Assembly (NCBI GenBank): GCA_031256895.1
Contig: JAIRPR010000064.1
Coordinates: 1 to 44,137, forward strand
Origin: Coriobacteriaceae bacterium
GTDB lineage: Bacteria > Actinomycetota > Coriobacteriia > Coriobacteriales > Eggerthellaceae
DNA length: 44,137 bases
Reading direction: 5' to 3'
Every line of letters begins with the position of its first letter. Positions within the stretch are counted from its first letter, which is position 1. Shown one piece after another: positions 1-40,626 of this stretch. A model generated the notes under the pieces. The model did not search any database, was not told the origin of the DNA, and worked only from the letters and a program-made list of their open reading frames with translations. The position numbers and the translations under genes are program-made.

Positions 1-2999
1 CTGCCGGTGGCCACGATGTCGCCCTTGGCCACCTTGGCTCCGGTCGCCTTGTTGAAGGCGGTCACCTGTCCGGCGGCCACCAGGTCGGCGTTGGCGGCGG
101 CGACACCAGGCGCCACCAGATAGGCTGGGGTGGCACCGTATATCACATAGTCGGCGTTCTGGCCGATTATCTTCCCGCCGCTCACGCAGAAGTCCACGGT
201 ACCCTGGGCCTTGGGGCTTGCGGGATCGATCTCCACGGTGTAGGTGACGGGTTGAAGGGTTCCATAAGCTGCCACATCGGCACTCACCATGCCTGAGGCT
301 TTGATGTCTGCCTTGGACACAGGCTTGCCCGTGGCCTTGTTGAATGCGGTCACCTGGCCTGCCAGCACAGGGTCCGCATTCACGGCAGGCACACCGGCGG
401 CCACCAGGTATTGCGGGGTCACGCCGTAGATGATGTAATTCGCGCTTTCGCCGATTATCGTGCCGCCGCTCACATAGAAGTCCACATCGCCCTCCGCCTT
501 GACAGGGCTGGGGTCGATGGCCACGGTGTAGATCACGGGCTGGGCGGTACCGTACTTCGCCACGTCTGCGCTCACGGCGCCCGACACGGCTATGTCGCCC
601 TTGGCCACCGGGGTGCCTGTGGCCTTTTCGAAGGCGGTCACGCTGCCGGCTGCCACCAGGTCGGCGTTGGCGGCGGCCACGCCTGCGGACACCAGATAGC
701 TGGGGGTCGTGCCATAGATGATATAGCGGTCGCTTTCGCCGATTATCGTGCCGCCGCTCACATAGAAGTTCACCGTGCCCTGGGCAGGGGGTGTGCCCTT
801 ATCGTTGCGTATCGTGTAGGTGACCGCTTGGGCAGTGCCATAGAGCCCCACATCGGCCGACACGCTGCCGGTGACCACGATGTCGCCCTTGGCCACCGGG
901 GTGCCTGTGGCCTTTTCGAAGGCGGTCACGCTGCCGGCTGCCACCAGGTCGGCGTTTGCGGCGGCCACGCCGGGCGCCACCAGATAGGTGGGCGTTGCGC
1001 CATAGATCACGTAGTCGGCGTTCTGCCCGATGATGGCCCCGCCGGATACGTAGAAGTCAACCGTGCCTGAGGCCTTGGGCAGGGATGCATCCGCAGTGAC
1101 GGTATAGCTTATGGCTTGGGGAGAGCCGAAGGAGGCCTCCAAGCCGGACACCGAACCGACGATGCCTATCCCCCCCGAGGGAACCTGCGCGCCGGTCACC
1201 TTATCATAGGCGGTCACCTGTCCGGCTGCCACCAGGTCGGCGTTTGCGGCGGCGACGTCTGCCACCGTGAGGTACTGCGGGGTGGCACCGAAGATGACAT
1301 AGCCTTCGCTCTGGGCGATGATGGCACCACCGGACACGATGAAGTCAACGCTGGCCGTGGCTTGCGGGTTCGTGGGGTCGATGCCCACCGTATAGGTGAT
1401 GCCCTGGGCAATGCCGAAGAGCGAAGGATCGGCGGAAAGGGTGCCGGCTGTCACCAGGTCGGTCTTGGCCACCGGAGCGCCGGTCGCCCGGTTGAATGCG
1501 GTCACCGCCCCCGCCAACACCAGGTCGGCATTTGAGCGGGCTACATCCCGTACTTCCAGGAACTGCGGCGTCACGCCATATATCACATAAGCTGCGTTCT
1601 GACCGATGATCGAGCCCGCAGAAGTGTAGAAGTCCACGATGCCGCTTGCCTTAGGCATTCCCGTGTCATATCTCACCGAATAGGTTATGGGCTGGGCGAG
1701 GCCAAAGAGCGAGGGGTCGACGGAAAGGGTGCCGACAGCCACGATATCGGTCTTGGCAACCGGTGCGCCCGTCTGCCGATGGAAGGCGGTCACCGCACCG
1801 GCCTGGACCAAGTCGGCGTTGGCGGAAGCGACACCGGGCGCCACCAGGTACTGCGGCGAGATGCCGTAGATCACGTAATCGGCGTTCTGGCCGATGATGT
1901 CACCTGCGGCCACATAGAAGTCCACCTTTCCGGAAGCCTTGGGCGTTCCCGTGTCATATCTCACCGAGTAAGTGATGGCCTGAGAGGTGCCAAAGAGCGA
2001 GGGGTCGGCAGAAAGGGTGCCGACAGCCACGATGTCGCCCTTGGCAACCGGTGCGCCCGTCTGCTTGCGGAAGGCGGTCACCGTGCCTGCCAGCACCAGG
2101 TCGGCATTGGCTGCGGCTACGCCGGGTGCCACGAGGTAAGTGGGGGTCGCGCCATAAATGACGTAATCGTTGTTCTGGCCGATGATAGCGCCGCCGCTCA
2201 CGTAGAAGTCCACGGTGCCGATTGCACGGGGGTTGCCGGTGTCAGCGCGGATCGTGTAGGTGACGGTCTGGGCGGTGCCGAAATCGGCCACGGCTTCGGA
2301 AACAGTGCCGCTAGTCTCGATGTCGCCCTTGGCAACCTGGGCGCCGGTCGGCCGGTAGAACGCCGTCACCACACCGGCCTGCACCAGGTCGGCGTTGGCA
2401 GAAGCAACACCGGCTGCCACCAGGTACTGCGGCGAGCTGCCATAGATGACGTAATCGGCATTCTGTCCGATTATCTCCCCTTCACTCACATAGAAGTCGA
2501 CCTTGCCGACTGCCCGGGGGCTGCCGGTATCGCCCTTTATCTGGTAGCTTATGGGCTGGGCTATGCCAAAGAGGGCAATATCGGCCGACAGGGTGCCGCT
2601 GGCCTCGATGTCGGTCTTGGCAACCGGGGCGCCGGTCGCCCGATTGAAGGCGGTCACCTGGCCAGCCAGCACGCGGTCGATGTTTGCCATGGCCACGCCG
2701 GGGGCAATCAGATACTGCGGGGTAACGCCATAGATGACGTAATCGGCGCTCTGGCCGATGATGGTCCCGGCACTCACGTAGAAGTCCACCGTTCCTGAGG
2801 CACGGGGGTTGCCTGCGTCGCTCCGTACCAGGTAGGTGACGGATTGGGCGGTGCCGAAATCGGCTGCGTCGTCGGATATGACCCCTATTGCCAGGATGTC
2901 TGACTTGGCAACCGGAGCACCGGTCGCCCGGTTGAAAGCGGTCACCGCACCGGCCTGCACCAGGTCGGCATTGGCTGGTGCCACGCCGGGGGCGAGCAG
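1..2999 (-). pseudogene. Giant adhesin, third segment, open to the left edge (partial)
   Basis: Hand translation of the minus strand in the same frame from 2999 down to base 1 gives uninterrupted repeat protein of about 10.4 units, with no stop codon. The ORF track omits it because the frame leaves the window without a stop. The units resemble those of the middle segment but are somewhat more varied: one has 'TPQFLEVRDVARSNADLV', another replaces VDFY with VNFY. Whether the C-terminus carries a cell-wall anchor cannot be seen here. The segment is called pseudogene only because it lies behind two stop codons. The coding frame itself shows no decay. Confidence 0.7.
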
Positions 3000-3002
3000 T
3001 TA
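3000..3002 (-). other. In-frame TAA stop inside a later repeat unit
   Basis: The codon stands where nearly all units have TAC or TAT (Tyr) in 'TPQ-Y-LVAPGV'. Here the sequence reads CAG TAA CTG CTC, so the final base of the Tyr codon has changed. The frame is open on both sides. Confidence 0.9.
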
Positions 3003-6000
3003 CTGCGGGGTGGTGCCGTATATCACGTAGTCTGTGTTCTGGCCGATGATGGTCCCGGCACTCACGAAGAAGTTCACGGTGCCTATGGCCTGGGGGCTTC
3101 CAGCATCGCCCCGGATAGTGTAGGTCACGGTCTGCGCGGTGCCGAAAAGGGCCACATCGGCAGACACGCTGCCCGTTGCCAGGATGTCGGCCTTGGCCAC
3201 CGGGGCGCCGGTCGCCCGGTTGAAGGCGGTCACCGTGCCGGCCTGCACCAGGTCGGCATTGGCAGCAGAAACACCAGGTGCCACCAGATAGGTGGGGGTC
3301 ACGCCATAGATGACGTAATCCTGGTTCTCGCCTATGATCGCCCCGGCGCTCACGTAGAAGTCAACGCTGCCGCTGGCCTTGGTGCTCGAGGGATCCACCG
3401 CCACGGTGTAGATGACGGTCTGCTTTTTGCCGTAATCCGCAACTGCGGCGCTCAGGGTGCCGTTTGCACTGATGTCAGCGGCATCCACCTTGGCCCCGGT
3501 CGCCTTGTTGTAGGCGGTCACCGCACCAGCATGCACCAGGTCGGCATTGGCGGCAGGGACGCCTGCGGCAACCAGGTAGGTGGGGGTCACGCCATAGATG
3601 ACGTAATTCGCGTTCTGCCCGATGATGGCCCCGCCGTTCACATAGAAGTCCACGCTGCCGCTTGCCGGGGGGCTTGCAAGGCCGATGTTCACCGTATAGG
3701 TGACGGTCTGTTTGCTGCCATAGTCGGCAACGGCGGCGCTCAAGGCGCCCGATGCCTGGATGTCGCCCTTGGCCACCGGGGCGCCGGTCGTCTTGTTGTA
3801 GGCGGTCACCGCACCAGCCAACACCAGGTCGGCATTGGCGGCAGGGACGCCAGCTGCCACCAGGTACTGAGGGGTGGCGCCATAGATGACGTACTCCGCG
3901 TTCTGCCCGATGATGGAACCCCCGCTCACGTAGAAGTCAACAGCTCCGCTCGCTTGAGGGCTGGCAGGATCCACGGCCACGGTGTAGGTGATGGTCTGCT
4001 TCGTGCCAAAATCGGCAACCGCGGCGCTCAAGGCGCCGTTTGCCCTGATGTCGCCTTTGGCGACCTTGCCACCGGTGGCCTTGTTGAATGCGGTCACCGC
4101 ACCGGCCTGCACCAGGTCGGCGTTTGCAACGGGCACGCCCGGGGCTACCAGGAACTGAGGGGTCGTGCCATAGATGACATAGTCTGCGGTTTCGCCGATT
4201 ATCGACCCGCCGCTCACATAGAAGTCCACAGGACCGCTTGCCTGGGGGCTTGCAAGATCCACTGCCACGGTGTAGGTGATGGTCTGCTTCGTGCCGAAGT
4301 CTGCCACATCAGCGCTCAAGGTGCCGGTTGCCTGGATGTCGGTCTTGGCCACCTTGGCACCGGTCGCCCGGTTGAATGCGGCCACCGCACCAGCCTCCAC
4401 CAGGTCGGCGTTGGCAGCAGCAACCCCTGCTGCCACCAGGTACTGGGGGGTGGACCCGTAGATCACGTAATCGGCAGTCTGTCCGATGATGGACCCCCCG
4501 TTCACGTAGAAGTCCACGATGCCCGCAGCCTTCGGGTTGCTGTTGTCATGGCGCACGGCATAGGTGATGGGTTGCGCGATGCCGAAGCGAGCGACGTCGT
4601 CAGTCAAAGACCCGCTTACGACCAGGTCGGTCTTGGCCACCTTGGCACCGGTCGCCCGGTAGAAGGCCGTCACCTTGCCTGCAAGCACCAGGTCGGCGTT
4701 GGCGGCGGTCACACCAGGGGCAACCAGGTACTGCGGAGTCTCACCATAGATGACGTAGTCGGCGTTCTGGCCTATGATGGCTCCACCGCTCACGAAGAAG
4801 CCAACGATGCCTATGGCCTTGGGGCTGCCCGTATCGCCCCGCACGGTATAGGTGACGTTCTGCGCCGTGCCGAAGAGGGCTACATCGGCGGATATACTGC
4901 CGCTGGCCTCGTTGTCGGTCTTGGCCACCTTGTCACCGGTCGCCCTGCGGAAGGCGGTCACCTGGCCGGCCGACACCAGGTCGGCGTTGGCTGCGGCCAC
5001 GCCAGAGGCAACCAGGTACTGCGGCGTGGCGCCGTAGATGACGTATTCCGCGTTCTGGCCTATGATGGACCCGCCGCTCACATAGAAGTCAACGGTGCCT
5101 ATGGCTTGGGGATTCCCTGTATCGCCCCGCACCGCGTAGGTGACAGGCTGGCGGGTGCCATAGTCTGCCACGGCATCGGAAAGGCTGCCACTGGCAAGGA
5201 TGTCGGCCTTGGCCACCGGTGCGCCGGTTGCCTTGCGGAAGGCCGTTACTGCCCCTGCCAGCACCAGGTCGGCGTTGGCGGATGCCACGTCCGGGGCAAC
5301 CAGGTAGGTGGGGGTCACCCCGTAGATAACGAAATCATCATTCTGGCCTATGATAGTGCCGCCGCTCACATAGAAGTCAACGGTGCCTTGGGCGCGGGGG
5401 CTGCCCGTGTCGCCCCGCACCATGTAGGTGATGGATTGGGCAGACCCATAACTTGCCACATCGGCGGAGATACTTCCGCTGGCCTCGATATCGGTCTTAG
5501 CCACCTTGGCACCGGTCGCCCGTTTGAAGGCAGTCACTTGTCCGGCTTGCACCCGGTCGGCGTTGGCGGCAGCCACACCGGGGGCGACCAGGTACTGAGG
5601 GGTCACGCCGTAGATCACGTAGTCGGCGTTCTGGCCTATGATGGACCCGCCGCTCACGAAGAAGTCAACCGTACCTATAGCCTGGGGGTTTCCTGTATCA
5701 CCCCGCACCGTGTAGGTGACGGCCTGGCGGGTGCCGAAGGTGCCCACGTCATCGGAAATACTGCCGCTTGCCTCGATGTCGCCCTTGGCTACCGGGGCGC
5801 CGGTGGCCTTGCGGAAGGCCGTCACCGCGCCTGCCAGCACCAGGTCGGCGTTGGCTGCAGCCACACCGGGGGCGACCAGGTACTGCGGGGTCGTGCCATA
5901 GATGACATAATCGGCGTTCTGGCCGATGATGGCCCCGCCGCTCACGTAGAAGTCCACGGTGCCTTGGGCGCGGGGGCTGCCGGTGTCGCCCCGTACGGTA

Positions 6001-7103
6001 TAGACGACAGGTTGCGCAGTGCCAAAGGCGCCCACGGCATCAGAAATACTGCCGTTTGCCTCGATGTCGCCCTTGGCAACCTGGGCACCGGTGGCCCTGC
6101 GGAAGGCCGTCACAGCACCTGCCAGCACCAGGTCGGCATTGGCTGCGGCCACACCAGGGGCGACCAGGTACTGCGGAGTGGCGCCGTAGATGACGTAGTC
6201 GGCGTTCTGGCCGATGATCGCCCCACCGCTCACATAGAACTTGACCTGGCCGGAAGCCGGGGGATTGCTTGGGTCGGCCTTCACGGTGTAAGTGACCGGT
6301 TGGGCCATGCCGAAGTACTGGGAGTCACCCGAAAGAAGCCCACTAGCCTCGATATCGCCCTTGGCCACCGGGGCACCGGTAGCCTTGCGGAAGGCGGTCA
6401 CAGCCCCTGCGGCCACGAGGTCTGCGTTGGCTGCGGCCACACCGGGGGCAACCAGGTACTGAGGGGTGGCCCCGTAGATCACGTATTCGGCGCTCTGGCC
6501 TATGATGGTGCCGCCGCTCACGTAGAAGTCCACCGTGCCCGATGCCTTCGGTGTCGCCGTGTCGATGGCCACCGTGTAGGTGATCTGCTGCTTGGTGCCG
6601 AAGAGGGCGGGGTCATCGCTCACCGTGCCGCTTGCCTGGATGTTTCCTTTGGGCACGGCAAAACCCGTCGTCTTGTTGAAGGCGGTCACCTGGCCTGCCA
6701 GCACGGGATCGGCTGCTACCGCTGCCACGCCAGGGGCCACCAGGTACTGAGGGGTGACGCCATAGATGATGTATTCGGCGCTCTGGCCTATGATGGTGCC
6801 GCCGCTCACGTAGAAGTCCACCGTGCCGGAGGCCTTGGTGGGGCTGATGTCAGATGTCACGGTGTAGGTGACCCTTTGGGCGCTGCCAAAGAGCGTCGTG
6901 TCGGCAGATACCGCACCGACGACCGCAAGCTCGCTCTTGGGCACGGGGGTGCCGGTCGCCTTCTTGAATGCGACCACCTGGCCTGCTGTCACCAGGTCGG
7001 CGTTTGCCGTGGGCACGCCTGCAGCCACCAGATAGGTGGGGGTCGTGCCATAGATCACGTAGTCGGCGCTCTGGCCTATGATGGTGCCGCCGCTCACGTA
7101 GAA
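3000..7103 (-). pseudogene. Giant adhesin, middle segment: 14 repeats between two in-frame stops
   Basis: This is the direct continuation, in the same frame, of the 7104-12278 reading frame after its TAG. It holds only 96-aa repeats of the type 'YVIYGxTPQYLVAPGVAAAN...'. The spacing between the two stops is exactly 14 x 96 + 24 codons, so there is not one net indel in 4.1 kb. The ORF track starts it at GTG 7097, but no Shine-Dalgarno sequence precedes that codon and it lies 6 bases past the stop, so independent initiation is unlikely. It ends at TAA 3000-3002, where other units have a Tyr codon (TPQ-Y-LV). It may be translated only by readthrough, in cells where the stop has been recombined away, or not at all. 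A sequencing error at the stops cannot be excluded. Confidence 0.7.
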
Positions 7104-7106
7104 CTA
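7104..7106 (-). other. In-frame TAG stop inside repeat unit 5
   Basis: The codon takes the place of Asp/Asn (GAC/AAC) in most units at 'V-D-FYVSGG'. The unit directly before has TAC (Tyr: 'VYFQVSGG') at this position, so one change from TAC would give TAG. The flanking codons GTG and TTC TAC GTG match the other units exactly. Confidence 0.9.
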
Positions 7107-10100
7107 CACCATTCCGCTGGCCGGAGGGGTGCTGGGGTCGATGTTCACCGTATAGGACACCGTTTGGGCAACCCCGTAGTCGGCCACGGCATCTGATAGG
7201 CTGCCGACAATGCTGATGGCGCTCGCCGGGACCGGGGTTCCGCTGGCCTTCTCAAAGGCGCTCACCTGACCTGCTGCCAGAAGGTCGGCATTGGCTGCGG
7301 GCACGCCTGCAGCCACCAGGTAGGTGGGGGTCGTGCCATAGATGACATAGTTTGCGTTCTGGCCGATGATGGTGCCGCCCGACACCTGGAAGTACACGGT
7401 GCCCGAAGCCCGAGGGCTGCTGGTGTCGGAATTCACCGTATAGGCGACCGGCTGGGCTGTGCCGAACAAGGCCGCACTGTCTGAGAGAGAAGGCGTTGCA
7501 CTGATGCCCGCAGAAGGCACCTTGTTGCCGCTTGCCTTCTCGTAGGCGCTCACATGGCCTGCGGCCACCAGGTCGGCATTGGCTGTCGCCACACCTGCAG
7601 CCGAAAGGTACTGGGGCGTCGCGCCGAACACGATGTAGGAAGCGCTTTCGCCGATGACCGCACCCTCCGACACATAGAAGCCCACGGATGCGGAAGCCGG
7701 GGGGCTGCTGACATCGGCCGCAACGGTATAGCGTACCTGCTGCAGAACGCCCAAGCTGGCTGCATCCTTTGCCAAAGGCCAGCCGCTGATGTCGATGCCC
7801 GATGCCGGCACCGGGGTGCCGGTGGCCTTCTCATAGGCCCTCACGCTGCCGGCGGCAACCAGGTCCGCATTGGCGGCGTCGACGCCCGAGACGGGCAGGA
7901 AGCGGAGGGTCTCGCCATAGATGACGTAGCGGGCGCTCTGCCCGATGACCGTGCCTTCGGACACATAGAAGTCCACGGTGCCAGAGGCCTTGGGCACACT
8001 GGTGTCTGCGGCCACGGTAAAGCTTATCGCTTGGCGCACACCCAGGTCGCTGTCCTGCCTGCCCAACACGCCTGCCACGGTGATGCCGGAAGCGGGCACG
8101 GTGGCACCGGTGGCCTTTTCCCGGGCGCTCACGCGGCCGGCCGTCCTCAGGTCGGCATTTGCGGCATCGACTTCAGAGACCGAAAGGAACTGCGGGGTCT
8201 GGCCGTACACCACATAGCTCGCGCTTTCCCCTATGATATCCATACCGACCAGGTAGTCGCGCCAAGCAGTGGCGGTGTTGCCATCGGAATCGGTGACCTC
8301 ATAGCTCACCCGGAAGACGCCAGGCACCGAGGTGTCGAAATAGCTTGCGGTGTTCGTTATCGGGCTTCCGGCGCCGTCGAGCACCCTCAGCCTGCCGGAA
8401 GCGATGAGCCCCGGCAATGAAAGCGCCGTCCAGGCGTCTTCGGCATCGGCCACGGCGACCCCGCTGTAAAGGTCCGACAGCGTTGGCACAGCAGCACCAA
8501 TGCCTAGGACGACCTGGGATGAAGCCGTTATCGTAGGGGTGCCGTCCGCGATGTTCACCGCAATGGTGGCCGAAGCGGCAGGCTCTTCCACCACATAGGC
8601 CACGAAGGAGTCGTTCGCCACGTGGTCCTTGGTGAAGCTCTCGTTCCGTATGGCCACGGTGGCAGCCGTCGTCTGGATGCCCGAGGCAGTGAAGCCGGTG
8701 ACGCGGTAGGCGCCCAGGCCGTGATAGCTTGGCTGCGAAAGCAAGGCCAGGCGGTCGGCGCTGCCCAAGGCCAGGTAGGAATCGACCCAGGCGTGGTTTC
8801 TGCGGGTGTTGTTGGCAGTGTAGTTCAGCACATAGCCGTTATGGTAGATGACATCGGCCGGCTCCACCCTGACATAGACCGTCTTCTTGTAGGCGGTGTT
8901 CTTGTCGAGCTGCACGGTGACCTTGTAGTAGCCGCCCGTGTCGGGGATGCTGGCTGTGTTGTTTATCGGGAAGGTGGTGTTGGCGGCATCGATGCTCACC
9001 GCTTGGGACGACCCATCGCTCAAGTCGGTAGCGCCCGCTTTGACCAACAGCAGCAACTGTGCCGCACTGGTGGTGGCGCGCGCTTGAATCATGCCTATGA
9101 CCTGGCTCTCAGCAAGAACGTCATAGGCGGTGGGCTGCACGGTGACATAAGGGGCAGAAGCAAAGCTGGCATCGTGGTAGGCGGTGGCGCCTGCCGGGGC
9201 GCTTGCGGTTCCTGCCGGGTTCGTGTTGCCCAGCCTGTCCACCAGCTGCACGTACACGCGGTCGTCCGCTTGGAGGGGCAGACCGGCCGGCAGCACCAGC
9301 TCATAGGTGCCCGTGGTGGGGCTTGTCTGCACCAGGCTCACCGCGGCATCGGTGGCCTTGTCCTTGATAACGCTGCCGTTCGCACGTACGATGCTGTAGA
9401 CTGCGCCGCCGGGGATGACAGGGCCATCGCTCAAGGGGTCTGCCAACGACGTCGTCATCGACCAGGTGCCTTCCAGGGTGCGCTCATTGGACCATATGGG
9501 GGATGCGGTCGTCATGACAGCAGCTTTGGGCGGGGTCGTGTCCGTGACCACCTCCACATCATCGGTGATGTACTCCGCAATCAACGAATCGGGGTCGTTC
9601 TTGTCCGCAGTGCCGCGCCAGGCATCGATGACCTCGTAGCGTGCGCCCTCCACCGCGAAGGAGCCCAGATCGAACTCTATCATGCCCTGGCGGGTGGTGC
9701 CAAAGACGTCCATCTCGTAGGTGCTCGAAGCCGTCATGGTGCGGGTGGTGCCCCCCAAGGAAGCCGGCAGCGTCTCTTTCAGCACGGCATAGACCTCGCC
9801 ATCATAGGCGGGGCGGCCGTCATCATCCAGTCCCTCAGGCACGCGCGCCTGCACGTATACATGTTTGTCGGCGTTCTCGACCGGCAGGATGTCGGTGATG
9901 CGCGGCGGCGCGTTGTTCGCGCTCAGGCGGATGAGCCGGTTGGGGTACACGGTCTTCCCCGCCCAGGTGTTGTTGCTGTTCCAGCCACCGAAGCTCGAGC
10001 TATAATTGCCCTTTTCCAGGCTGATGGCAGGGGCCGGCCATTTGTCGGGATCGCCTGTAGGCGAGTTGTCCTGTGTGTATTCCCAGCCCAGGAAGCGGCT

Positions 10101-12278
10101 GTTCCGTATATCCAAAACACCTCCGATCCAGACGGAAAGGGCAGTGGGGCCGTTGGAGTTGCCGCTTGCCCGAAGCTTGTAGGAGCGCTGCTGGATGTCG
10201 AAGTAACGGGGGAAATCCATGGTGAAGGTGAAGTCGTAGCCGTCTATGACGCCGTCTAGCTGTCCTAAGGTGCCCGATCCCCCGTCGGTGCGCCCATAGG
10301 CTTCCAGTATGGAACCGGGGCCCACGTTGAAAGAGAGCGATGAGTTGTTGTTCGAGATGGCAGCGCCGTATTCCGCATACAGGAGCAAGGCGCTCTTCTC
10401 GCCGGTGACCTCCAACAGGTTGTTGGTAGCAGAGCTCGGCATCCAGATGGCGGCGTTCTGCGCATCCCCATGGGGGGTGGTGGCGTGCTCGCGTTTGTTG
10501 CCTTCGTTATGGATGCGGCACATGGCGCCGTTGATGACCCGTATGCTGTTGTTGTTGGATGCCAGCACCAAGGCGTCCTGGTTGTAGCGGTCTGCGTTGG
10601 TGCTCACTCCGGGGTCCTTGCGCACTATCTCGAACAATGCCTGGTCGGTCACCAAAGCCTGCACACTGCGACGCATGTACAGCGTTCCTATGATTGCGTT
10701 GTCGATCCCGGTGTCCTTCGACTGGAAGTAGGCTTGGGAGCCTTGCCCTGCGATATCGATGCGCCCGTTCATCAGGTTCATCGACAAGGCATTGCCTAAG
10801 CCGTTGTTGACAACGCGCAGCTCGGCGCCGCCCGTCACAGTAAGGCCGGCATCGCCCGAGGCGTTCTGCCCGCTCAAGGCAAGCACCGCTCGGGACATAA
10901 GGTTGGTGTTCGCCGCTGTCGAGGTCCCGTCCCCCGTGATGGTCACAACAGCACCGTTCACCAGGGTCATCTCTGCCTTGCCGTTCGTTGCAGGGGCTGC
11001 CGCTGTATCCCAGCCCTCAATTTCCCCCAAAGCAACCGCGATACCCGACCCCGTGGACTCAAAAGCGGTGACCGGGCCCTTGTTGATGTTCACCACCGCG
11101 TTGTCGTACACACGGAAGTAGGTGCCTATGCTGTTGTTGCGCCCATTGCCCGTCAGGTTGACGCCCCGGCTGTTGCCGCTGAAGTCCAGGTACACCTGGG
11201 CACCGGCTTCCACCGTGAGGCCTTTCGCGTGGATATGCCCTTTCTGGCTGGCATTGGTTAACATGCTGACGTTCGACGCCCAGCGCACCGTGCCCGCAAG
11301 CACCAGGTCGCTGTTGGGGGCGCTGAAAAGCGGCGCGGTGTTGGCGTTGTCGCTCGCGACGCCTTCCAGGCGCACCGTCCAGTTGCGCGTGTCCTGCTCG
11401 AAGGTGGCGGCGGTGCCGGACTGGGTGGCAGCTGTGGTGGTGCCGGTGGTCACGTTGGCGTGGATGATGAAGTGGCTGTTCTTTGCCGTGGCCCCGCTGG
11501 TTGCGGTCTTTCTTACCACAAGGTCTACCAGGGAAAGGGTCTTCGCTGACGCCACGTTGGCCAACGTGAGGCCACGCCCGGTGTTGGTGCCGTAATCCAG
11601 CAGATGGCCATGGCCGTTTATGGTGAGGCTCTTGTCGATGTTGGCGGGGTTGGTGCCGTCATAGGTGATGTCTGCCCCCAGGTCAATGGTATCGCCTTCT
11701 GCGGCACCGTTCATCGCGGCGACGAAATCTGCCCAAGTGGTCACCGGGGCAGCGGCAGGCGTGAAATCGCGTGCCTGGGGGCTGAGCAGCCCATCGGCAG
11801 CCTGTGCGCCCCCCTCGATAGGTCCGGTTGCTGCGGCTTCATCGGGGTTCTCGGCGGCTCCAATGGCTTCCGTTGCCTCGGTGGCATCGCCACCTTCAGA
11901 GGCCTCCGTGGCCTCGGCAAGGCTGCTTCCCCCGGCAAGGCTGCCTAGCTCGGCAAGGCTGCCTGCCTCGGCGAGGCTTCCCGCCATGGCGCCAGCCATG
12001 CTCGCAGCAAGGTTGCCGGACGTGCCGCTTTCTGCGGCGCTCTCGTCGGCAAAGATAAGGCCGGTGCTTTGCAGAGGGTTCAAGGTGAGCACCAGGGCTA
12101 TGGTGAGCACCAGGGCAAGCAGCCGCTGGCCCTTCCTCACGATGCCGGTGCCCTTCAAAGCCCGGTTCCTGACCTTCTGCTGCGCGGTTGCGGCTTCACC
12201 CGCAGGGGTTGCGCTGCACCTGCCTTGGATGCCTTTTACCCACACGTCTGCGTTCCTCGTCTTGCTGGACCTGTCCAT
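7104..12278 (-). CDS. Giant secreted adhesin, N-terminal segment (1724 aa, ends at an in-frame TAG)
   Basis: Probable surface adhesin. A long basic N-terminus (residues 1-50) precedes a hydrophobic signal segment (about 52-67) with likely cleavage near 'IFA-DES' (about 77). Residues 80-165 are Ala/Glu/Gly-rich with short GSLAE-type repeats. From about 178 ('TTWADFVAAMN') to roughly 650 the pattern of Asn/Gly-rich short strands fits the pectate-lyase-like beta-helix adhesin family. Ig-like modules follow, and from residue about 1339 the 96-aa tandem repeats begin. The ATG at 12278 has a strong SD (AAGGAGAAGG, 8-nt spacing). The reading frame ends at TAG 7104-7106 inside repeat unit 5, but the same frame stays open to the window edge. 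This is therefore probably the first part of a protein of more than 4000 aa that has been interrupted. No anchor motif is visible because the C-terminus lies outside the window. Adhesin role is family-based inference. Confidence 0.85.
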   Translation of the reverse strand: MDRSSKTRNADVWVKGIQGRCSATPAGEAATAQQKVRNRALKGTGIVRKGQRLLALVLTIALVLTLNPLQSTGLIFADESAAESGTSGNLAASMAGAMAGSLAEAGSLAELGSLAGGSSLAEATEASEGGDATEATEAIGAAENPDEAAATGPIEGGAQAADGLLSPQARDFTPAAAPVTTWADFVAAMNGAAEGDTIDLGADITYDGTNPANIDKSLTINGHGHLLDYGTNTGRGLTLANVASAKTLSLVDLVVRKTATSGATAKNSHFIIHANVTTGTTTAATQSGTAATFEQDTRNWTVRLEGVASDNANTAPLFSAPNSDLVLAGTVRWASNVSMLTNASQKGHIHAKGLTVEAGAQVYLDFSGNSRGVNLTGNGRNNSIGTYFRVYDNAVVNINKGPVTAFESTGSGIAVALGEIEGWDTAAAPATNGKAEMTLVNGAVVTITGDGTSTAANTNLMSRAVLALSGQNASGDAGLTVTGGAELRVVNNGLGNALSMNLMNGRIDIAGQGSQAYFQSKDTGIDNAIIGTLYMRRSVQALVTDQALFEIVRKDPGVSTNADRYNQDALVLASNNNSIRVINGAMCRIHNEGNKREHATTPHGDAQNAAIWMPSSATNNLLEVTGEKSALLLYAEYGAAISNNNSSLSFNVGPGSILEAYGRTDGGSGTLGQLDGVIDGYDFTFTMDFPRYFDIQQRSYKLRASGNSNGPTALSVWIGGVLDIRNSRFLGWEYTQDNSPTGDPDKWPAPAISLEKGNYSSSFGGWNSNNTWAGKTVYPNRLIRLSANNAPPRITDILPVENADKHVYVQARVPEGLDDDGRPAYDGEVYAVLKETLPASLGGTTRTMTASSTYEMDVFGTTRQGMIEFDLGSFAVEGARYEVIDAWRGTADKNDPDSLIAEYITDDVEVVTDTTPPKAAVMTTASPIWSNERTLEGTWSMTTSLADPLSDGPVIPGGAVYSIVRANGSVIKDKATDAAVSLVQTSPTTGTYELVLPAGLPLQADDRVYVQLVDRLGNTNPAGTASAPAGATAYHDASFASAPYVTVQPTAYDVLAESQVIGMIQARATTSAAQLLLLVKAGATDLSDGSSQAVSIDAANTTFPINNTASIPDTGGYYKVTVQLDKNTAYKKTVYVRVEPADVIYHNGYVLNYTANNTRRNHAWVDSYLALGSADRLALLSQPSYHGLGAYRVTGFTASGIQTTAATVAIRNESFTKDHVANDSFVAYVVEEPAASATIAVNIADGTPTITASSQVVLGIGAAVPTLSDLYSGVAVADAEDAWTALSLPGLIASGRLRVLDGAGSPITNTASYFDTSVPGVFRVSYEVTDSDGNTATAWRDYLVGMDIIGESASYVVYGQTPQFLSVSEVDAANADLRTAGRVSAREKATGATVPASGITVAGVLGRQDSDLGVRQAISFTVAADTSVPKASGTVDFYVSEGTVIGQSARYVIYGETLRFLPVSGVDAANADLVAAGSVRAYEKATGTPVPASGIDISGWPLAKDAASLGVLQQVRYTVAADVSSPPASASVGFYVSEGAVIGESASYIVFGATPQYLSAAGVATANADLVAAGHVSAYEKASGNKVPSAGISATPSLSDSAALFGTAQPVAYTVNSDTSSPRASGTVYFQVSGGTIIGQNANYVIYGTTPTYLVAAGVPAANADLLAAGQVSAFEKASGTPVPASAISIVGSLSDAVADYGVAQTVSYTVNIDPSTPPASGMV

Positions 12279-30669: not shown

Positions 30670-31926
30670 TCAATAGTCGAATTCGGGGTACAGCGGATGT
30701 CTTGCGATGATGGCATCGACCTCTTCCTTGATGGCCGCAAGGCCTGCCTCGTCATGCACCGAGAACATGGTGCGGGCGATAAGGGCGCCCACCTGGTAAC
30801 AATCCCCCGCATCGAGGCCACGGGTGGTCGCCGCAGCAGAGCCAACCCTGATGCCGCTGGTCACAAAGGGCGAACGCGGCTCATTGGGAATCGAGTTCTT
30901 GTTGACCGTCAGGCCGACACGCTCGAGCAGCTTCTCGGCGTCCTTCCCGGTCACATCTGCCGCCGTCAGGTCCACCAGGCACAGATGGTTGTCGGTGCCG
31001 CCAGAGACCAGGCGCAGGCCGCCATCCATCATGCCTTTGCCCAGCTGCTCGGCATTCACGACCACTTGGTCGATGTAATCGGCATAACTGGGCTGCAAAG
31101 CTTCGCCGAAGGCGACCGCCTTGCCTGCGATCACATGCATGAGCGGGCCGCCCTGTGCACCGGGGAAGACTGCCTTGTCTATCTTTGCGGCGATCTCTTC
31201 ATTGTTGGTCAGGATGAAGCCGCCACGGGGTCCGCGCAAGGTCTTGTGGCTGGTGGAGGTGACCACATCGGCACAAGGAAGCGGGCTTGGGTGGGCACCG
31301 GTTGCCACGAGGCCTGCGATGTGGGCCATGTCCACCATGAACAAGGCATCGACCTCATGGGCGATGGCTGCCATGCGCTCGAAGTCTATCGTGCGTGGAT
31401 AAGCCGAAGCCCCGCCCACGACAAGGCGTGGGCGCAGCTCTTTGGCAAGGCGGGCCATTGCCTCGTAGTCGATCGTCTCAGTTTCAGGATGAAGGCCATA
31501 GGCGGCGAAGCGGTAGTATTTCCCCGAGAAGTTGACCGGTGAGCCATGGGTGAGGTGGCCGCCCTGGTCAAGGCTCATACCCAAGACGGTGTCGCCCAGG
31601 TCGAGCAGGGCGGTGTAGGCGGCGAAGTTCGCATTGGCACCGGAATGGGGCTGCACATTGGCGAACGAGCAGTTGTAGACCGCGCAAGCCCGCTCACGCG
31701 CAAGATCTTCGGCGATATCGACCTTCTCGCAGCCGCCATAGTAGCGCTTGCCGGGATAGCCTTCCGCGTACTTGTTGGTCAGCACGCTGCCGACCGCCTC
31801 CATGACGGAAGGCGAGGTGAAGTTCTCCGAGGCTATCAGCTCGATGCTTGAACGTTGGCGGGCCAGTTCCTGGGAAAGCGCGTTCGCGACGGCGGGGTCT
31901 GTTCGAGAGACATATTGCAGCGGCAT
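30670..31926 (-). CDS. glyA: Serine hydroxymethyltransferase
   Basis: 418 aa PLP enzyme exchanging serine and glycine with tetrahydrofolate. The PLP-binding Lys lies in '[15 protein letters not shown]'. The N-terminal '[16 protein letters not shown]' and '[17 protein letters not shown]' blocks are complete. ATG is preceded by AAAAGGAG. It leads the glyA-upp-dCMP deaminase operon; together with atp this matches a gene order known in Firmicutes. Confidence 0.98.
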
Positions 31927-32106: not shown

Positions 32107-32276
32107 GGTTGCTTGACGGGCGGCTTGACGGGCGGCTTGACGGGTTGCTTGACGGGTTGCTTGACGGGCGGCTGTGCGCCTTCCCCCTGTCTGGCGGCCA
32201 CAGGTCGCCTACCAGGTTGCTTGACGGGTTGCTTGACGGGTTGCTTGACGGGCGGCTGTGCGCCTTCCCCCTGTCT
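32107..32276. repeat. Duplicated arrays of a 12-bp repeat (GGTTGCTTGACG / GGCGGCTTGACG)
   Basis: Five units at 32107-32166 and three at 32215-32250, each array followed by the same 26-bp tail (GGCGGCTGTGCGCCTTCCCC and on). Units differ only at two bases (TT or CG). The whole block appears duplicated with a period of about 84 bp. Confidence 0.9.
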
Positions 32277-32289
32277 TCCCCTGTCCGCC

Positions 32290-33528
32290 TCATTCTGCCA
32301 GGAACAGGCTTCCCATGAAGGTGTGGCCTTCGGCAAGCAAAAGGCCGGTGGCGCCGGCCTGCGCCTCGGTCATACGTTGTGCGCCATTGTGGCTGACGCC
32401 CGGGCCTGCCAGCACAAAGGGCACCGGTTCGCGCGAATGCTTCCTGGTTGTAAGCGGTGTGGGGTGGTCGGGCATGACCGCTATGCGCAAGGGGTGCGAA
32501 CGGGCGTACTCGAGCAGGGGTGCCAGGATATGGGCGTCGCTTTGCTCTATGCTGTTGCGCTTCTCGTCGGGACGGCCGTCGTGGCCTGCCGCATCGGGCG
32601 CCTCCACATGGACGATGACGACCTCGTTCCCTTCCTTCAGCAGGGATATTGCCCCCCTTCCTTGTGCCGCGAAGTCGTTGGTGGGGCCATCGGTGACCCC
32701 TGCGAACTCGCAATACCGCATGCCTGTCATGAATGCCAAGCCTTTTAGCAGGTCAACGGCAGAATTGACCACCGCCTTCTTATGGTGCCTCTGGGCGAAG
32801 GGCACCAGTGACGAAGGCCTCATGCCTGGCCAGAAAGCCCAGACATGGTTGGCTGGCCACAGGCCTGCGCCCACGCGTCGTGCGTTCAGGGGGCTTGCGG
32901 CAAGCACCTTGTTCGCGGCCTGGATATAGCCGGTCAGGGCATGTGCCGCCTCATATGCGGCATGGCCTTCGGGTATGCCGCCCCCGCCGGGAAGCTGCGG
33001 CTGATATGCAGCCGTGATGTCGCGGCCCGTGTTGTCATGGGGGGTTGCATAAGCAAGGCCCATGAGCTCGGGGTGGCCGTTGACTACCAGGACCTGCCGA
33101 AACGAGGTGCCCGGATACAAGGTGAAGGTGTCGCTGTCGAGGGCAGACTTCAATTCTGCAGCCAAGGCGTTGCCGTCCTCGGTGGAGATGTTGTCGGTCG
33201 AATAGCCCCTCATGACGCCGTCTTCCACATAGCAGAGGTTCAACCGGAAGGCGACCTGCCCTGGCTCGAGGCAGATGCCGAGCGCAGCCGCCTCGATGCC
33301 GCCACGGCCAAGGTCGAAGGCGGCTGGGTCGTAACCCATGATGGAGAGGCAGGCGACGTCCGAACCGCTTTCCTTGGATGGGGGCACGTTCTGCATGAGC
33401 CCCGTGATGCCCGTCTGTGCCAAATGGTCAAGGCAGGGCGTACGGCTTGCCTCAAGGCTGGTCCTGCCCCCGAACTCAGGAACCGGGCAGCCCGACGCCC
33501 CATCGAGTATGACTAGTGCGTATTGCAT
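32290..33528 (-). CDS. apgM-type phosphoglycerate mutase family protein; proposed homoserine kinase
   Basis: 412 aa metalloenzyme of the alkaline phosphatase superfamily, related to archaeal-type cofactor-independent phosphoglycerate mutase. The nucleophile region is 'KESGSDVACLSIMGYDP'. Metal ligands are in 'LVILDGASGCP', 'DAAGHDGRPDEK', 'VMPDHPTP' and 'RKHSREPVPFV'. A subset of this family occurs beside threonine genes in genomes without a normal ThrB and has been named a proposed homoserine kinase. Here it is divergent from thrC across an 86-bp promoter region, which supports that role. Without a genome-wide look for ThrB and other phosphoglycerate mutases, either function remains possible. 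Confidence 0.85.
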   Translation of the reverse strand: MQYALVILDGASGCPVPEFGGRTSLEASRTPCLDHLAQTGITGLMQNVPPSKESGSDVACLSIMGYDPAAFDLGRGGIEAAALGICLEPGQVAFRLNLCYVEDGVMRGYSTDNISTEDGNALAAELKSALDSDTFTLYPGTSFRQVLVVNGHPELMGLAYATPHDNTGRDITAAYQPQLPGGGGIPEGHAAYEAAHALTGYIQAANKVLAASPLNARRVGAGLWPANHVWAFWPGMRPSSLVPFAQRHHKKAVVNSAVDLLKGLAFMTGMRYCEFAGVTDGPTNDFAAQGRGAISLLKEGNEVVIVHVEAPDAAGHDGRPDEKRNSIEQSDAHILAPLLEYARSHPLRIAVMPDHPTPLTTRKHSREPVPFVLAGPGVSHNGAQRMTEAQAGATGLLLAEGHTFMGSLFLAE

Positions 33529-33572
33529 GAAATCCTCCGCGCTTGGTCGTGCTTCGTTCTTTTTTCGTGCAT

Positions 33573-33601
33573 AGTATACGTTACCGATAACGTCCTCAGA
33601 A
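33573..33601 (-). promoter_or_regulatory. Promoter candidate for the apgM-type gene
   Basis: On the minus strand, TATACT (33573-33578) is a good -10. TTCTGA about 17 bp upstream is a weak -35. The spacer is occupied by the palindrome listed below. Confidence 0.45.
33578..33593. promoter_or_regulatory. Operator-like palindrome between the apgM-type gene and thrC
   Basis: ACGTTA-CCGA-TAACGT is a perfect 6-bp inverted repeat with a 4-nt centre, in the 86-bp region shared by the divergent genes. It lies within the leftward promoter spacer and 22 bp from the thrC start, so one bound regulator could control both. Confidence 0.5.
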
Positions 33602-33614
33602 GGAAGAATGTCCT

Positions 33615-35165
33615 ATGACCCAGGTTTTCTACATCGACACACGCGGCCACTGCACCGAGCCGGTTCCTTTCACCGAGGCCTTGGTACAAGGGCTTGCCCC
33701 GGGCGGGGGGCTCTTCGTGCCGGTGAGCCTTCCCCATTTGAACCTTGATGAGATAGCGGCTCTGGCTAAGCTTCCTTATGCCGCCCGCGCCGCAGCCATC
33801 TACCAGGCTTTCGGAGTCGATCTCGAGCCTGAAGCCGTTGACGGGCTGATGGCGCAGGCTTATGGCAGCAACTTCGATGACCCCGATATCTGCCCGATAA
33901 CCTCGCTTGACGCTAACACCCATGTCCTTGAGCTGTGGCACGGCCCCACCAGCGCCTTCAAGGATATGGCGTTGCAATGCCTCCCCCGCTTCTTTTCGGC
34001 AAGCACCCGACAGCTGCGGGCACGAGGGCTGCCTGTCCCTGAGTTCTGCGTGTTGGTGGCCACTTCGGGCGATACCGGGAAGGCTGCCCTGGAGGGCTTC
34101 AAAGACATGCCCGGAGTGAGCATCGGCGTGCTGTTCCCGCAAGACGGGGTGAGCGACATCCAGTACAAGCAGATGGCGACCCAGTCGGGAAGCAATGTGA
34201 TGGTTTGGGGCGTTGAAGGGAACTTCGACGACTGCCAGACGGGCGTGAAGGCGGTGTTTGCGGACCGCGCCTTCAACGAACGTCTCGAACGGGAAGCCAA
34301 TGTTGCTTTGACCAGCGCTAATTCTATCAATTGGGGGCGGCTGCTGCCCCAGGTCGTCTATTATGTGTCAAGCTACGCAAGCTTGGTCGCCCAAGGGAAG
34401 ATAGCCTGCGGGGAAGCCATCGATGTGTGCGTGCCCACAGGGAACTTCGGGAACATCCTGGCCGCATGGTATGCGAAGCGCATCGGCACCCCCCTGGACA
34501 TGCTGATGTGCGCAAGCAACGAGAACCGGGTGCTGACCGACTTCATCAACACCGGGCGCTACGACATCTCCCAAAGGCAGTTCCTTTTGACCCCCTCCCC
34601 TTCGATGGACATCCTGGTGTCATCGAACCTTGAACGGCAGCTCTTCGAGCTCAACGGGCGCGATGCCATGGCCATCCGCACCTGGATGGAGGACCTGCGC
34701 GATGGAGGGCAGTTCAGGGTCGATGTCGACACCTTCGCCGCGCTGCGCAGGCATTTCGTGGCAGATTCGGTGAGCAACGCCGATTGCCTCGCAACTATCA
34801 GGCAGGCTTTTGAGAAGCACCGCTACCTTCTTGACCCCCATACCGCTGTCGCCTATCGTGTGGCAGAGCGCCTGCGGGGGCAAAACCCCGTCCTTATCGC
34901 CGCCACCGCCCACTGGGCGAAGTTCGGCGATTCCGTCTATCGGGCGCTGCACGGGATGGAGCCGAACGAGTCCCTCCCCGAAAACATACGGAGCTTGAGC
35001 GGTTGTGGGCTCAATAGGCTTATCTCCACCGAGACTCAGTGCTACAATATTCCCCAAGGCCTGGCTCGACTCGATGGGCTCGACCTTCGTTTCACCGATG
35101 TCATCAAGAAGCCTGCAGAAAGCATCGAAGAAGCAGTCCTGCAGTTCTTGGGAATTGGCGGTTGA
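33615..35165 (+). CDS. thrC: Threonine synthase
   Basis: 516 aa PLP enzyme turning O-phosphohomoserine into threonine. The PLP Lys is in 'HGPTSAFKDMALQ'. 'VATSGDTGKAALEG', 'SANSINWGRLLPQ' and 'VPTGNFGNILAAWYAKR' are family hallmarks of the longer class of ThrC. The C-terminal ~55 residues ('LSGCGLNRLIST' onward) form an extra tail. AGAAGGAAG upstream of ATG is the ribosome site. Its substrate would be made by the divergent neighbour if that is a homoserine kinase. Confidence 0.96.
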   Translation: MTQVFYIDTRGHCTEPVPFTEALVQGLAPGGGLFVPVSLPHLNLDEIAALAKLPYAARAAAIYQAFGVDLEPEAVDGLMAQAYGSNFDDPDICPITSLDANTHVLELWHGPTSAFKDMALQCLPRFFSASTRQLRARGLPVPEFCVLVATSGDTGKAALEGFKDMPGVSIGVLFPQDGVSDIQYKQMATQSGSNVMVWGVEGNFDDCQTGVKAVFADRAFNERLEREANVALTSANSINWGRLLPQVVYYVSSYASLVAQGKIACGEAIDVCVPTGNFGNILAAWYAKRIGTPLDMLMCASNENRVLTDFINTGRYDISQRQFLLTPSPSMDILVSSNLERQLFELNGRDAMAIRTWMEDLRDGGQFRVDVDTFAALRRHFVADSVSNADCLATIRQAFEKHRYLLDPHTAVAYRVAERLRGQNPVLIAATAHWAKFGDSVYRALHGMEPNESLPENIRSLSGCGLNRLISTETQCYNIPQGLARLDGLDLRFTDVIKKPAESIEEAVLQFLGIGG

Positions 35166-35315: not shown

Positions 35316-35657
35316 ATGAAGAATCTATCCAAGCTCGAACCGAGTATCCGGCTTAGCATCGAAGGCCCCGACAACAAGGGCGGCTCGGTCTTCGGCCCGG
35401 GCATTGCTGCCCTTTGCCTGGGAGTGCGCGAGATAGGGTCGCTCAACGCCGCCGCAAAGGGCATGGGCATGGCCTATTCGAAGGCATGGCGCATCATCAA
35501 GGACACCGAAGCCGCATTAGGGGTGCTGCTGCTCAACCGTGACGGCGCCCATGGCAGCACGCTCACCGACGAAGGCAACAAGCTGCTCGACATCCACATC
35601 GAGCTCCATGACCGCTTGACAGAAGAAGCGGCCAAGATATACCAGAGCCTGCTCTAG
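35316..35657 (+). CDS. ModE/LysR-like winged-helix DNA-binding protein
   Basis: 113 aa. It matches the N-terminal DNA-binding domain of ModE: 'FGPGIAALCLGVREIGSLNAAAKGMGMAYSKAWRIIKDTEAALG' covers the helix-turn-helix (only this domain is present), then 'GSTLTDEGNKLLD'. The molybdate-binding domains of full ModE are absent. In this lineage such single-domain proteins are often near molybdoenzyme or cofactor genes, but none is visible here. GAGGAG lies upstream of ATG. It follows thrC by 150 nt and may share its transcript or use its own promoter. Confidence 0.8.
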   Translation: MKNLSKLEPSIRLSIEGPDNKGGSVFGPGIAALCLGVREIGSLNAAAKGMGMAYSKAWRIIKDTEAALGVLLLNRDGAHGSTLTDEGNKLLDIHIELHDRLTEEAAKIYQSLL

Positions 35658-36559: not shown

Positions 36560-36575
36560 TGTTTCACGTGAAACA
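36560..36575. promoter_or_regulatory. parS-like site 1 (exact 16-mer)
   Basis: TGTTTCACGTGAAACA is the centromere-like sequence bound by ParB (consensus TGTTNCACGTGAAACA, conserved across Firmicutes and Actinobacteria). The match is exact and fully palindromic. No parA or parB gene lies in the window. Confidence 0.75.
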
Positions 36576-36605: not shown

Positions 36606-36621
36606 CGTTTCACGTGAAACA
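36606..36621. promoter_or_regulatory. parS-like site 2 (15 of 16)
   Basis: CGTTTCACGTGAAACA differs from site 1 only in the first base and lies 46 bp away. The following 30 bp are also repeated nearly exactly, so the two sites arose by tandem duplication. Confidence 0.7.
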
Positions 36622-40113: not shown

Positions 40114-40626
40114 AAGCTTCCTTTCTCAAGCCAGCCCCCTGCATGCACCGCTCCTGTCGGCTTGCATAGCAGCCCTTGCGTCCGAGAAGCCGTGCTTGCT
40201 CCCAAAACCATGCCAGGGCTATCGAACCTGTCTTTCTTGTCGTCCCCTACTATGCCACTGAGGATCCAAGGCTGCCTTAGGGAAGGCTTACGGCAAACGA
40301 ACAATCCTGTAAGCTTACGGGGGCACCGGGCGGTTCCCTATGGCGCTGCATGCCTCCCTCACGTACCCCCGTACGCCACGGTCGGCCTTCGCGCCATTTG
40401 GAACCGCCCGGTGCCCCCTCTGCGGGCCTGGAGCCGGGCGGCCCATGGGATGCTGCATGCCTGGCTCACGTACCCCCGTACGCCACGGTCGGCCTTCGCG
40501 CCATTTGGAACCGCCCGGTGCCCCCTTTGCGGGCTTGGAGCCGGACGGCCCATGGGATGCTGCATGCCTGGCTTTTATGTGGGGCAGGCATCACCCCTTC
40601 AGTTGGGGACTGCCTTCCCGTAAGAA
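40114..40626. other. Repeat-filled spacer between kinase and ABC genes
   Basis: No gene. About half is occupied by the 107-bp tandem repeats (listed separately). A GTAAGCTTAC palindrome at 40309-40318 touches the left inverted arm. The ABC promoter presumably lies in 40114-40300, but no convincing hexamer pair was found. Confidence 0.6.
40319..40573. repeat. 107-bp tandem repeat with large inverted arms
   Basis: Units begin at about 40345, 40452 and 40559 (the third is cut short). Each holds the core CTCACGTACCCCCGTACGCC. A left arm GGGGGCACCGGGCGGTTCC (40319-40337) is the exact reverse complement of 40400-40418 and of 40507-40525, and the pairing extends inward through ATGGCGC / GCGCCAT. 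The region can therefore form a long hairpin in alternative ways. Confidence 0.85.

What the first reader, a model, noticed from the sequence alone, without database searches (positions are those of the whole stretch)
32290..35165. Divergent apgM-type gene and thrC: candidate non-canonical homoserine kinase
The apgM-like subset found beside threonine genes has been proposed as the missing homoserine kinase in genomes without ThrB. The shared promoter with thrC here supports this. It would be a phosphatase/mutase-superfamily enzyme doing kinase chemistry.
Basis: partly seen in the sequence, partly recalled or inferred. Interest (0 to 1): 0.55.

Follow-up and report, generated by a model that had tools for sequence, protein, structure and literature searches.

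The report
Threonine-linked phosphoglycerate-mutase-like enzyme gene
A gut bacterium has, back to back with its threonine synthase gene, a mutase-like enzyme gene that is clearly not its glycolytic mutase and probably helps make threonine, but the genome also has another likely homoserine kinase, so the 'missing kinase' it was thought to replace is probably not missing.

Summary
In detail: apgM-type gene 32290-33528 (-) and thrC 33615-35165 (+) are divergent across 86 bp, in an Eggerthellaceae MAG (77.5% complete). The protein belongs with the 'proposed homoserine kinase' (TIGR02535/PRK04200, 'ThrB2') clade, not with archaeal phosphoglycerate mutases, but scores below the TIGR02535 cut-off. 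The divergent apgM/thrC pair occurs in 40 of 57 informative Coriobacteriia loci. GpmI is present, so it is not the only mutase. Three basic residues of archaeal mutases are replaced by Tyr109, Phe232 and Glu309 throughout the clade. No GHMP ThrB or thrB_alt was found in the genus, but the window genome and 20 of 21 other Eggerthellaceae tested carry a second shikimate-kinase paralogue whose best match is the experimentally based Desulfovibrio homoserine kinase model. Elsewhere in the class, and in Pelotomaculum, the apgM-type gene coexists with canonical thrB. The gene is threonine-linked but not simply a ThrB replacement; only family f5 has it as the sole known candidate. Best reading: a ThrB2-like phosphotransferase feeding ThrC, redundant here with an SK-type kinase. 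Function untested.

The parts
32290..33528 (-). apgM-type (ThrB2-like) metalloenzyme, 412 aa; conserved D9, S56, D312, H316, D354, H355, H364; clade-specific Y109, F232, E309, P311, P353
33529..33614 (.). 86-bp divergent intergenic region; 15-nt block 33564-33578 conserved in the genus; inverted repeat 33578-33593 in the window only
33615..35165 (+). thrC, threonine synthase (long type), 516 aa
35316..35657 (+). small LysR/ModE-type HTH protein, 113 aa, conserved next to thrC in Coriobacteriales with and without the apgM-type gene
30670..31926 (-). glyA, serine hydroxymethyltransferase; neighbour downstream of the apgM-type gene, not found near it in the two genus mates, so probably not part of the unit

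Best explanation
The gene encodes a metal-dependent phosphotransferase of the ThrB2-like branch of the ApgM family, dedicated to threonine synthesis and not to glycolysis. Most likely it phosphorylates homoserine to the O-phosphohomoserine that ThrC uses: a phosphoryl group is taken from a donor onto Ser56 at the two-metal site and passed to the hydroxyl of homoserine, with Glu309 holding the amino group where a mutase has a Lys. In this genome it would be one of two such activities, the other being a shikimate-kinase-type homoserine kinase on another contig. Shown: genes, arrangement, conservation, clade, residue switch, presence of GpmI, no GHMP or APH-type ThrB found, presence of the SK paralogue. 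Inferred: substrate, donor, role of Glu309, redundancy.
For: Divergent thrC neighbour in 40 of 57 informative Coriobacteriia loci. Tree: the thrC-linked clade is sister to Pelotomaculum-type proteins, of which the two scanned pass TIGR02535 (494-505 bits), and is split from archaeal PGMs and second-type ApgM copies with 100/100 support. Metal and nucleophile residues are kept, while R113, R226 and K302 of the archaeal enzymes become Y109, F232 and E309 in nearly all 72 clade members. GpmI is present in all three genus members and in 48 of 48 apgM-bearing genomes of other orders. Family f5 (G040, G049, G057) has apgM and thrC, and no GHMP thrB, thrB_alt or SK-type kinase found. BT2402 mutants of the family are rescued by threonine (PMC7311316). 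High-confidence model (pLDDT 96) closest to archaeal ApgM 2zkt.
Against: BT2402 did not complement E. coli thrB (PMC7311316). The gene family coexists with canonical thrB in 65 of 69 other-order genomes and in the Pelotomaculum hom-thrB-lysC cluster. Most Eggerthellaceae have hom and thrC without it. The window protein misses the TIGR02535 cut-off (363.5 against 446.3). The SK paralogue gives this genome another candidate kinase. The residue comparison rests on two archaeal structures and eight second-type copies.
Confidence: 0.45

Rival explanations
1. The SK-type paralogue (G000:C18, about 9695-10369) is the homoserine kinase of this genome and of Eggerthellaceae generally, and the apgM-type protein does another threonine-linked job (for example a phosphatase or phosphotransferase acting on a pathway intermediate).
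For: SK-b present in 21 of 22 Eggerthellaceae tested plus G038, absent from three genomes with thrC-adjacent thrB and from G062. Best family NF040667, 164-174 bits, at most 111 for shikimate kinases, while the other SK in the same genome is the reverse. It lost the shikimate-binding Arg (FR to FI) and GGG became GGS in the copies read in full. The Desulfovibrio member complements E. coli thrB (PMC5764234). ApgM-type coexists with thrB elsewhere.
Against: Below the NF040667 cut-off of 197 bits. Family f5 has neither SK-b nor thrB and still keeps apgM and thrC. BT2402 is needed for growth without threonine in a genome without thrB. G001 showed no SK-b (83% complete).
Confidence: 0.38
2. A phosphoglycerate mutase isozyme that happens to sit beside thrC.
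For: Over the TIGR00306 apgM cut-off (369 against 320); catalytic metal site conserved; closest solved structures are archaeal PGMs.
Against: GpmI already present; basic residues of the mutases replaced across the clade; thrC linkage conserved across the class.
Confidence: 0.1
3. Chance neighbour with an unrelated phosphatase function.
For: 17 of 57 informative loci lack thrC next to it; most Eggerthellaceae lack the gene.
Against: The same divergent arrangement recurs in more than a dozen families of the class and never in another orientation; Pelotomaculum keeps it beside lysC-thrB-hom.
Confidence: 0.05

Closest known systems
TIGR02535 / PRK04200 'proposed homoserine kinase' (ThrB2; Bacteroides thetaiotaomicron BT2402)
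   Same: Same clade of the ApgM family, linked to threonine/aspartate-family genes, metal site kept, Ca-site Glu of the archaeal enzyme not kept (Q38 here, R38 in BT2402 per PMC9765024)
   Different: Window protein scores 363.5 against a 446.3 cut-off; 34-37% identical to Pelotomaculum members; genome also has an SK-type candidate kinase
Archaeal ApgM phosphoglycerate mutase (PDB 2zkt, 3kd8/3idd)
   Same: Fold, two-metal active site, nucleophilic Ser (E 2.6e-53; TM 0.79)
   Different: R113, R226, K302, T304, G345 replaced by Y, F, E, P, P; separate clade at 100/100; linked to thrC
NF040667 Desulfovibrio homoserine kinase (DvMF_0971, shikimate-kinase relative)
   Same: Not the window gene but its likely functional partner or rival: SK-b in the same genome is nearest this model
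   Different: Unrelated fold (P-loop kinase); SK-b of the window genome is 24 bits below the curated cut-off
GHMP homoserine kinase ThrB (TIGR00191)
   Same: Proposed same reaction
   Different: Unrelated family; not found in the three genus members; weak hits there are IspE

Membership tests
TIGR02535 proposed homoserine kinase (ThrB2) | Score at or above the curated cut-off 446.3 bits | tested here: not met
   363.5 bits; genus mates 352-382
TIGR02535 proposed homoserine kinase (ThrB2) | Phylogenetic grouping with TIGR02535-passing proteins, apart from archaeal PGMs | tested here: met
   100/100 split; the two Pelotomaculum-type members scanned pass
TIGR02535 proposed homoserine kinase (ThrB2) | Gene linkage to threonine biosynthesis | tested here: met
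TIGR02535 proposed homoserine kinase (ThrB2) | Genome lacks another homoserine kinase | tested here: inconclusive
   No GHMP or APH type, but SK-type candidate present, below its cut-off; MAG 77.5% complete
TIGR02535 proposed homoserine kinase (ThrB2) | Phosphorylates homoserine | not testable with these tools
   Needs an assay; BT2402 failed complementation (PMC7311316)
TIGR00306 apgM (subfamily) | Score at or above 320 bits | tested here: met
   369.2 bits
Archaeal ApgM phosphoglycerate mutase (PRK04024 equivalog) | Score at or above 489 bits | tested here: not met
   235.7 bits; 2zkt itself 590.9
Archaeal ApgM phosphoglycerate mutase (PRK04024 equivalog) | Basic residues R113, R226, K302 of 2zkt | tested here: not met
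   Y109, F232, E309
NF040667 SK-type homoserine kinase (for SK-b, G000:C18) | Score at or above 197 bits | tested here: not met
   173.4 bits, yet best of all models by 62 bits
GHMP homoserine kinase ThrB (TIGR00191) | Protein over 168.25 bits in the genome | tested here: not met
   Best 21 bits in G000 by genome scan, identified as IspE

The most novel reading that the evidence does not exclude
A class-wide, thrC-paired branch of the ApgM family catalyses homoserine phosphorylation from a non-ATP donor through a phosphoserine intermediate, marked by a Lys-to-Glu switch at the active site (E309), and is the sole homoserine kinase in one Coriobacteriales family (f5), while Eggerthellaceae use an unrecognised shikimate-kinase-type homoserine kinase.
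Probability: 0.3. Interest if true: 0.7.

Novelty: new variant of a known kind. Interest (0 to 1): 0.42.

Why it matters
Homoserine kinase is one of the commonest gaps in predicted amino acid pathways (20% of 148 prototrophs in PMC7311316), and whether the ApgM-like family fills it is unresolved. These data supply clean test sets: genomes with only the ApgM-like gene, only the SK-type gene, only ThrB, or pairs of them. They also supply a small set of residues to test, and they caution that thrC linkage alone does not show that ThrB is replaced.

Tried and rejected
The search for related loci with the single window protein found nothing; with an eight-sequence alignment it gave 50 loci. Weak TIGR00191 hits in the genus looked like a divergent ThrB but are IspE. 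TIGR00938 thrB_alt: no hit over cut-off in 61 genomes. Idea that the apgM-type gene is the genome's only mutase: rejected, GpmI present (in G000 split over two contigs). Idea that apgM and thrB exclude each other: true within the order in the sample, false in other orders and in Pelotomaculum. Rfam: no hit in the window. Sigma-70 and terminator scan of the intergenic region: nothing. The palindrome in the spacer is not conserved in genus mates and has chance about 0.08.

Full report
WHAT IS THERE. The window lies on contig 1 of a 2.36-Mb, 224-contig MAG that is 77.5% complete. The apgM-type ORF is 32290-33528 (-), 412 aa, with a ribosome-binding site and start conserved in the genus. thrC is 33615-35165 (+), 516 aa. 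Start codons are 86 bp apart.

FAMILY. NCBIfam gives TIGR00306 apgM 369 bits (cut-off 320, met), TIGR02535 'proposed homoserine kinase' 363.5 (cut-off 446.3, not met), PRK04200 361, and archaeal PGM PRK04024 only 236. The archaeal structure 2zkt gives the opposite order: PRK04024 591, TIGR02535 323. In an 82-row maximum-likelihood tree the window groups with its two genus mates (100/100), inside a Coriobacteriales clade, inside a Coriobacteriia clade. That clade is sister to Pelotomaculum-type proteins, of which the two scanned pass TIGR02535; archaeal PGMs and a second, more mutase-like copy found in some genomes fall on the other side of a 100/100 branch. The archaeal rows have long branches, so their exact place is less sure than the split. 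The predicted structure is confident (pLDDT 96.1) and its best PDB match is 2zkt.

ACTIVE SITE. The metal and nucleophile residues (D9, S56, D312, H316, D354, H355, H364) are kept. Columns constant in the ThrB2-like clade but different in both archaeal enzymes are Y109 (R113), F232 (R226), E309 (K302), P311 (T304) and P353 (G345), with conservative changes at V48 and M106; Y109, F232 and E309 are invariant in a separate 33-sequence alignment of the clade. Loss of three positive charges and gain of a negative one close to a metal ligand is what one would expect if the acceptor changed from an anionic phosphoglycerate to an amino acid. That reading is inference: no ligand-bound structure was examined.

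NEIGHBOURHOOD. Of 63 ThrB2-like loci in the class, 6 have under 1.5 kb upstream and cannot be judged. Of the remaining 57, 40 have thrC upstream and divergent, none in another orientation. A small LysR/ModE-type HTH gene stays with thrC, also in genomes without apgM. No glycolytic need is apparent: GpmI is present in all three genus members (in the window genome split over two contigs) and in 48 of 48 apgM-bearing genomes of other orders.

IS A HOMOSERINE KINASE MISSING? hom and thrC are present. GHMP ThrB was not found in the three genus members: the only GHMP protein in each is IspE. thrB_alt was not found. However, Eggerthellaceae carry two shikimate-kinase-family genes. One is an ordinary shikimate kinase. 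The other (SK-b; G000:C18 about 9695-10369) is best matched by NF040667, the Desulfovibrio homoserine kinase, at 173 bits against 111 for the best shikimate kinase model; the cut-off of 197 is not reached. In the ordinary copies the order is reversed. SK-b has lost the shikimate-binding Arg (FR to FI; residue role from general knowledge of shikimate kinases) and has GGS for GGG in the copies read in full. It is found in 21 of 22 Eggerthellaceae tested (G001, 83% complete, is the exception) and in G038 of another family. It is absent from G039, G048 and G060 (thrB beside thrC), from G062 (hom-thrB), and from the f5 genomes G040, G049 and G057. The Desulfovibrio protein was shown to complement E. 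coli thrB (PMC5764234). The window genome is therefore probably not without a homoserine kinase.

DOES THE GENE REPLACE THRB? Within the order, apgM and thrB never co-occur in the 250-genome class sample, but most Eggerthellaceae have neither. In the other orders of the class, 65 of 69 genomes with an ApgM-family match also have canonical thrB, in a hom-thrB pair in 20 of 20 loci inspected, while apgM stays opposite thrC elsewhere on the genome. In Pelotomaculum and relatives the apgM-type gene sits near lysC-thrB(-hom) in 12 loci. So linkage to threonine genes is robust, replacement of ThrB is not general, and only f5 fits the simple 'missing kinase' picture. Published work points the same way: ThrB2 mostly complements absence of thrB in gut genomes but 22 of 300 have both (PMC9026213), and BT2402 is needed without threonine yet does not complement E. 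coli thrB (PMC7311316).

VERDICT. Best single reading: a homoserine-phosphorylating enzyme redundant with an SK-type kinase (0.45), closely followed by another threonine-linked function with SK-b as the kinase (0.38).

Noticed in passing
G000 contig C18 about 9695-10369 (locus L215:3812-4486, +): Second shikimate-kinase paralogue, found in 21 of 22 Eggerthellaceae tested, best matched by the Desulfovibrio homoserine kinase model NF040667; probable unrecognised homoserine kinase of the family.
   Followed up: yes
36560-36575 and 36606-36621: Two copies in a 46-bp tandem repeat of TGTTTCACGTGAAACA (one exact, one with one mismatch), the parS chromosome-partition consensus as recalled; 0.01 expected by chance.
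   Followed up: partly
32111-32252: 12-bp tandem repeats (GCTTGACGGGCG-like) just downstream of the apgM-type stop codon, between it and glyA.
   Followed up: no
1-12278: About 288-bp repeats over 1-7600 encoding Ig-like (Big_3_5) repeats, beside a 1724-aa protein with a pectate-lyase-like adhesive domain: large surface proteins.
   Followed up: no
35316-35657: 113-aa LysR/ModE-type HTH protein kept beside thrC across Coriobacteriales; in some loci it lies between apgM and thrC. Candidate regulator.
   Followed up: partly
L131:4001-9184 and similar Pelotomaculum loci L117-L133: Gene passing the 'proposed homoserine kinase' cut-off lies beside a canonical hom-thrB-lysC cluster, so the TIGR02535 name does not imply absence of ThrB.
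   Followed up: yes
40345-40573: 107-bp tandem repeat, 2.1 copies at 95% identity, next to a two-component system.
   Followed up: no
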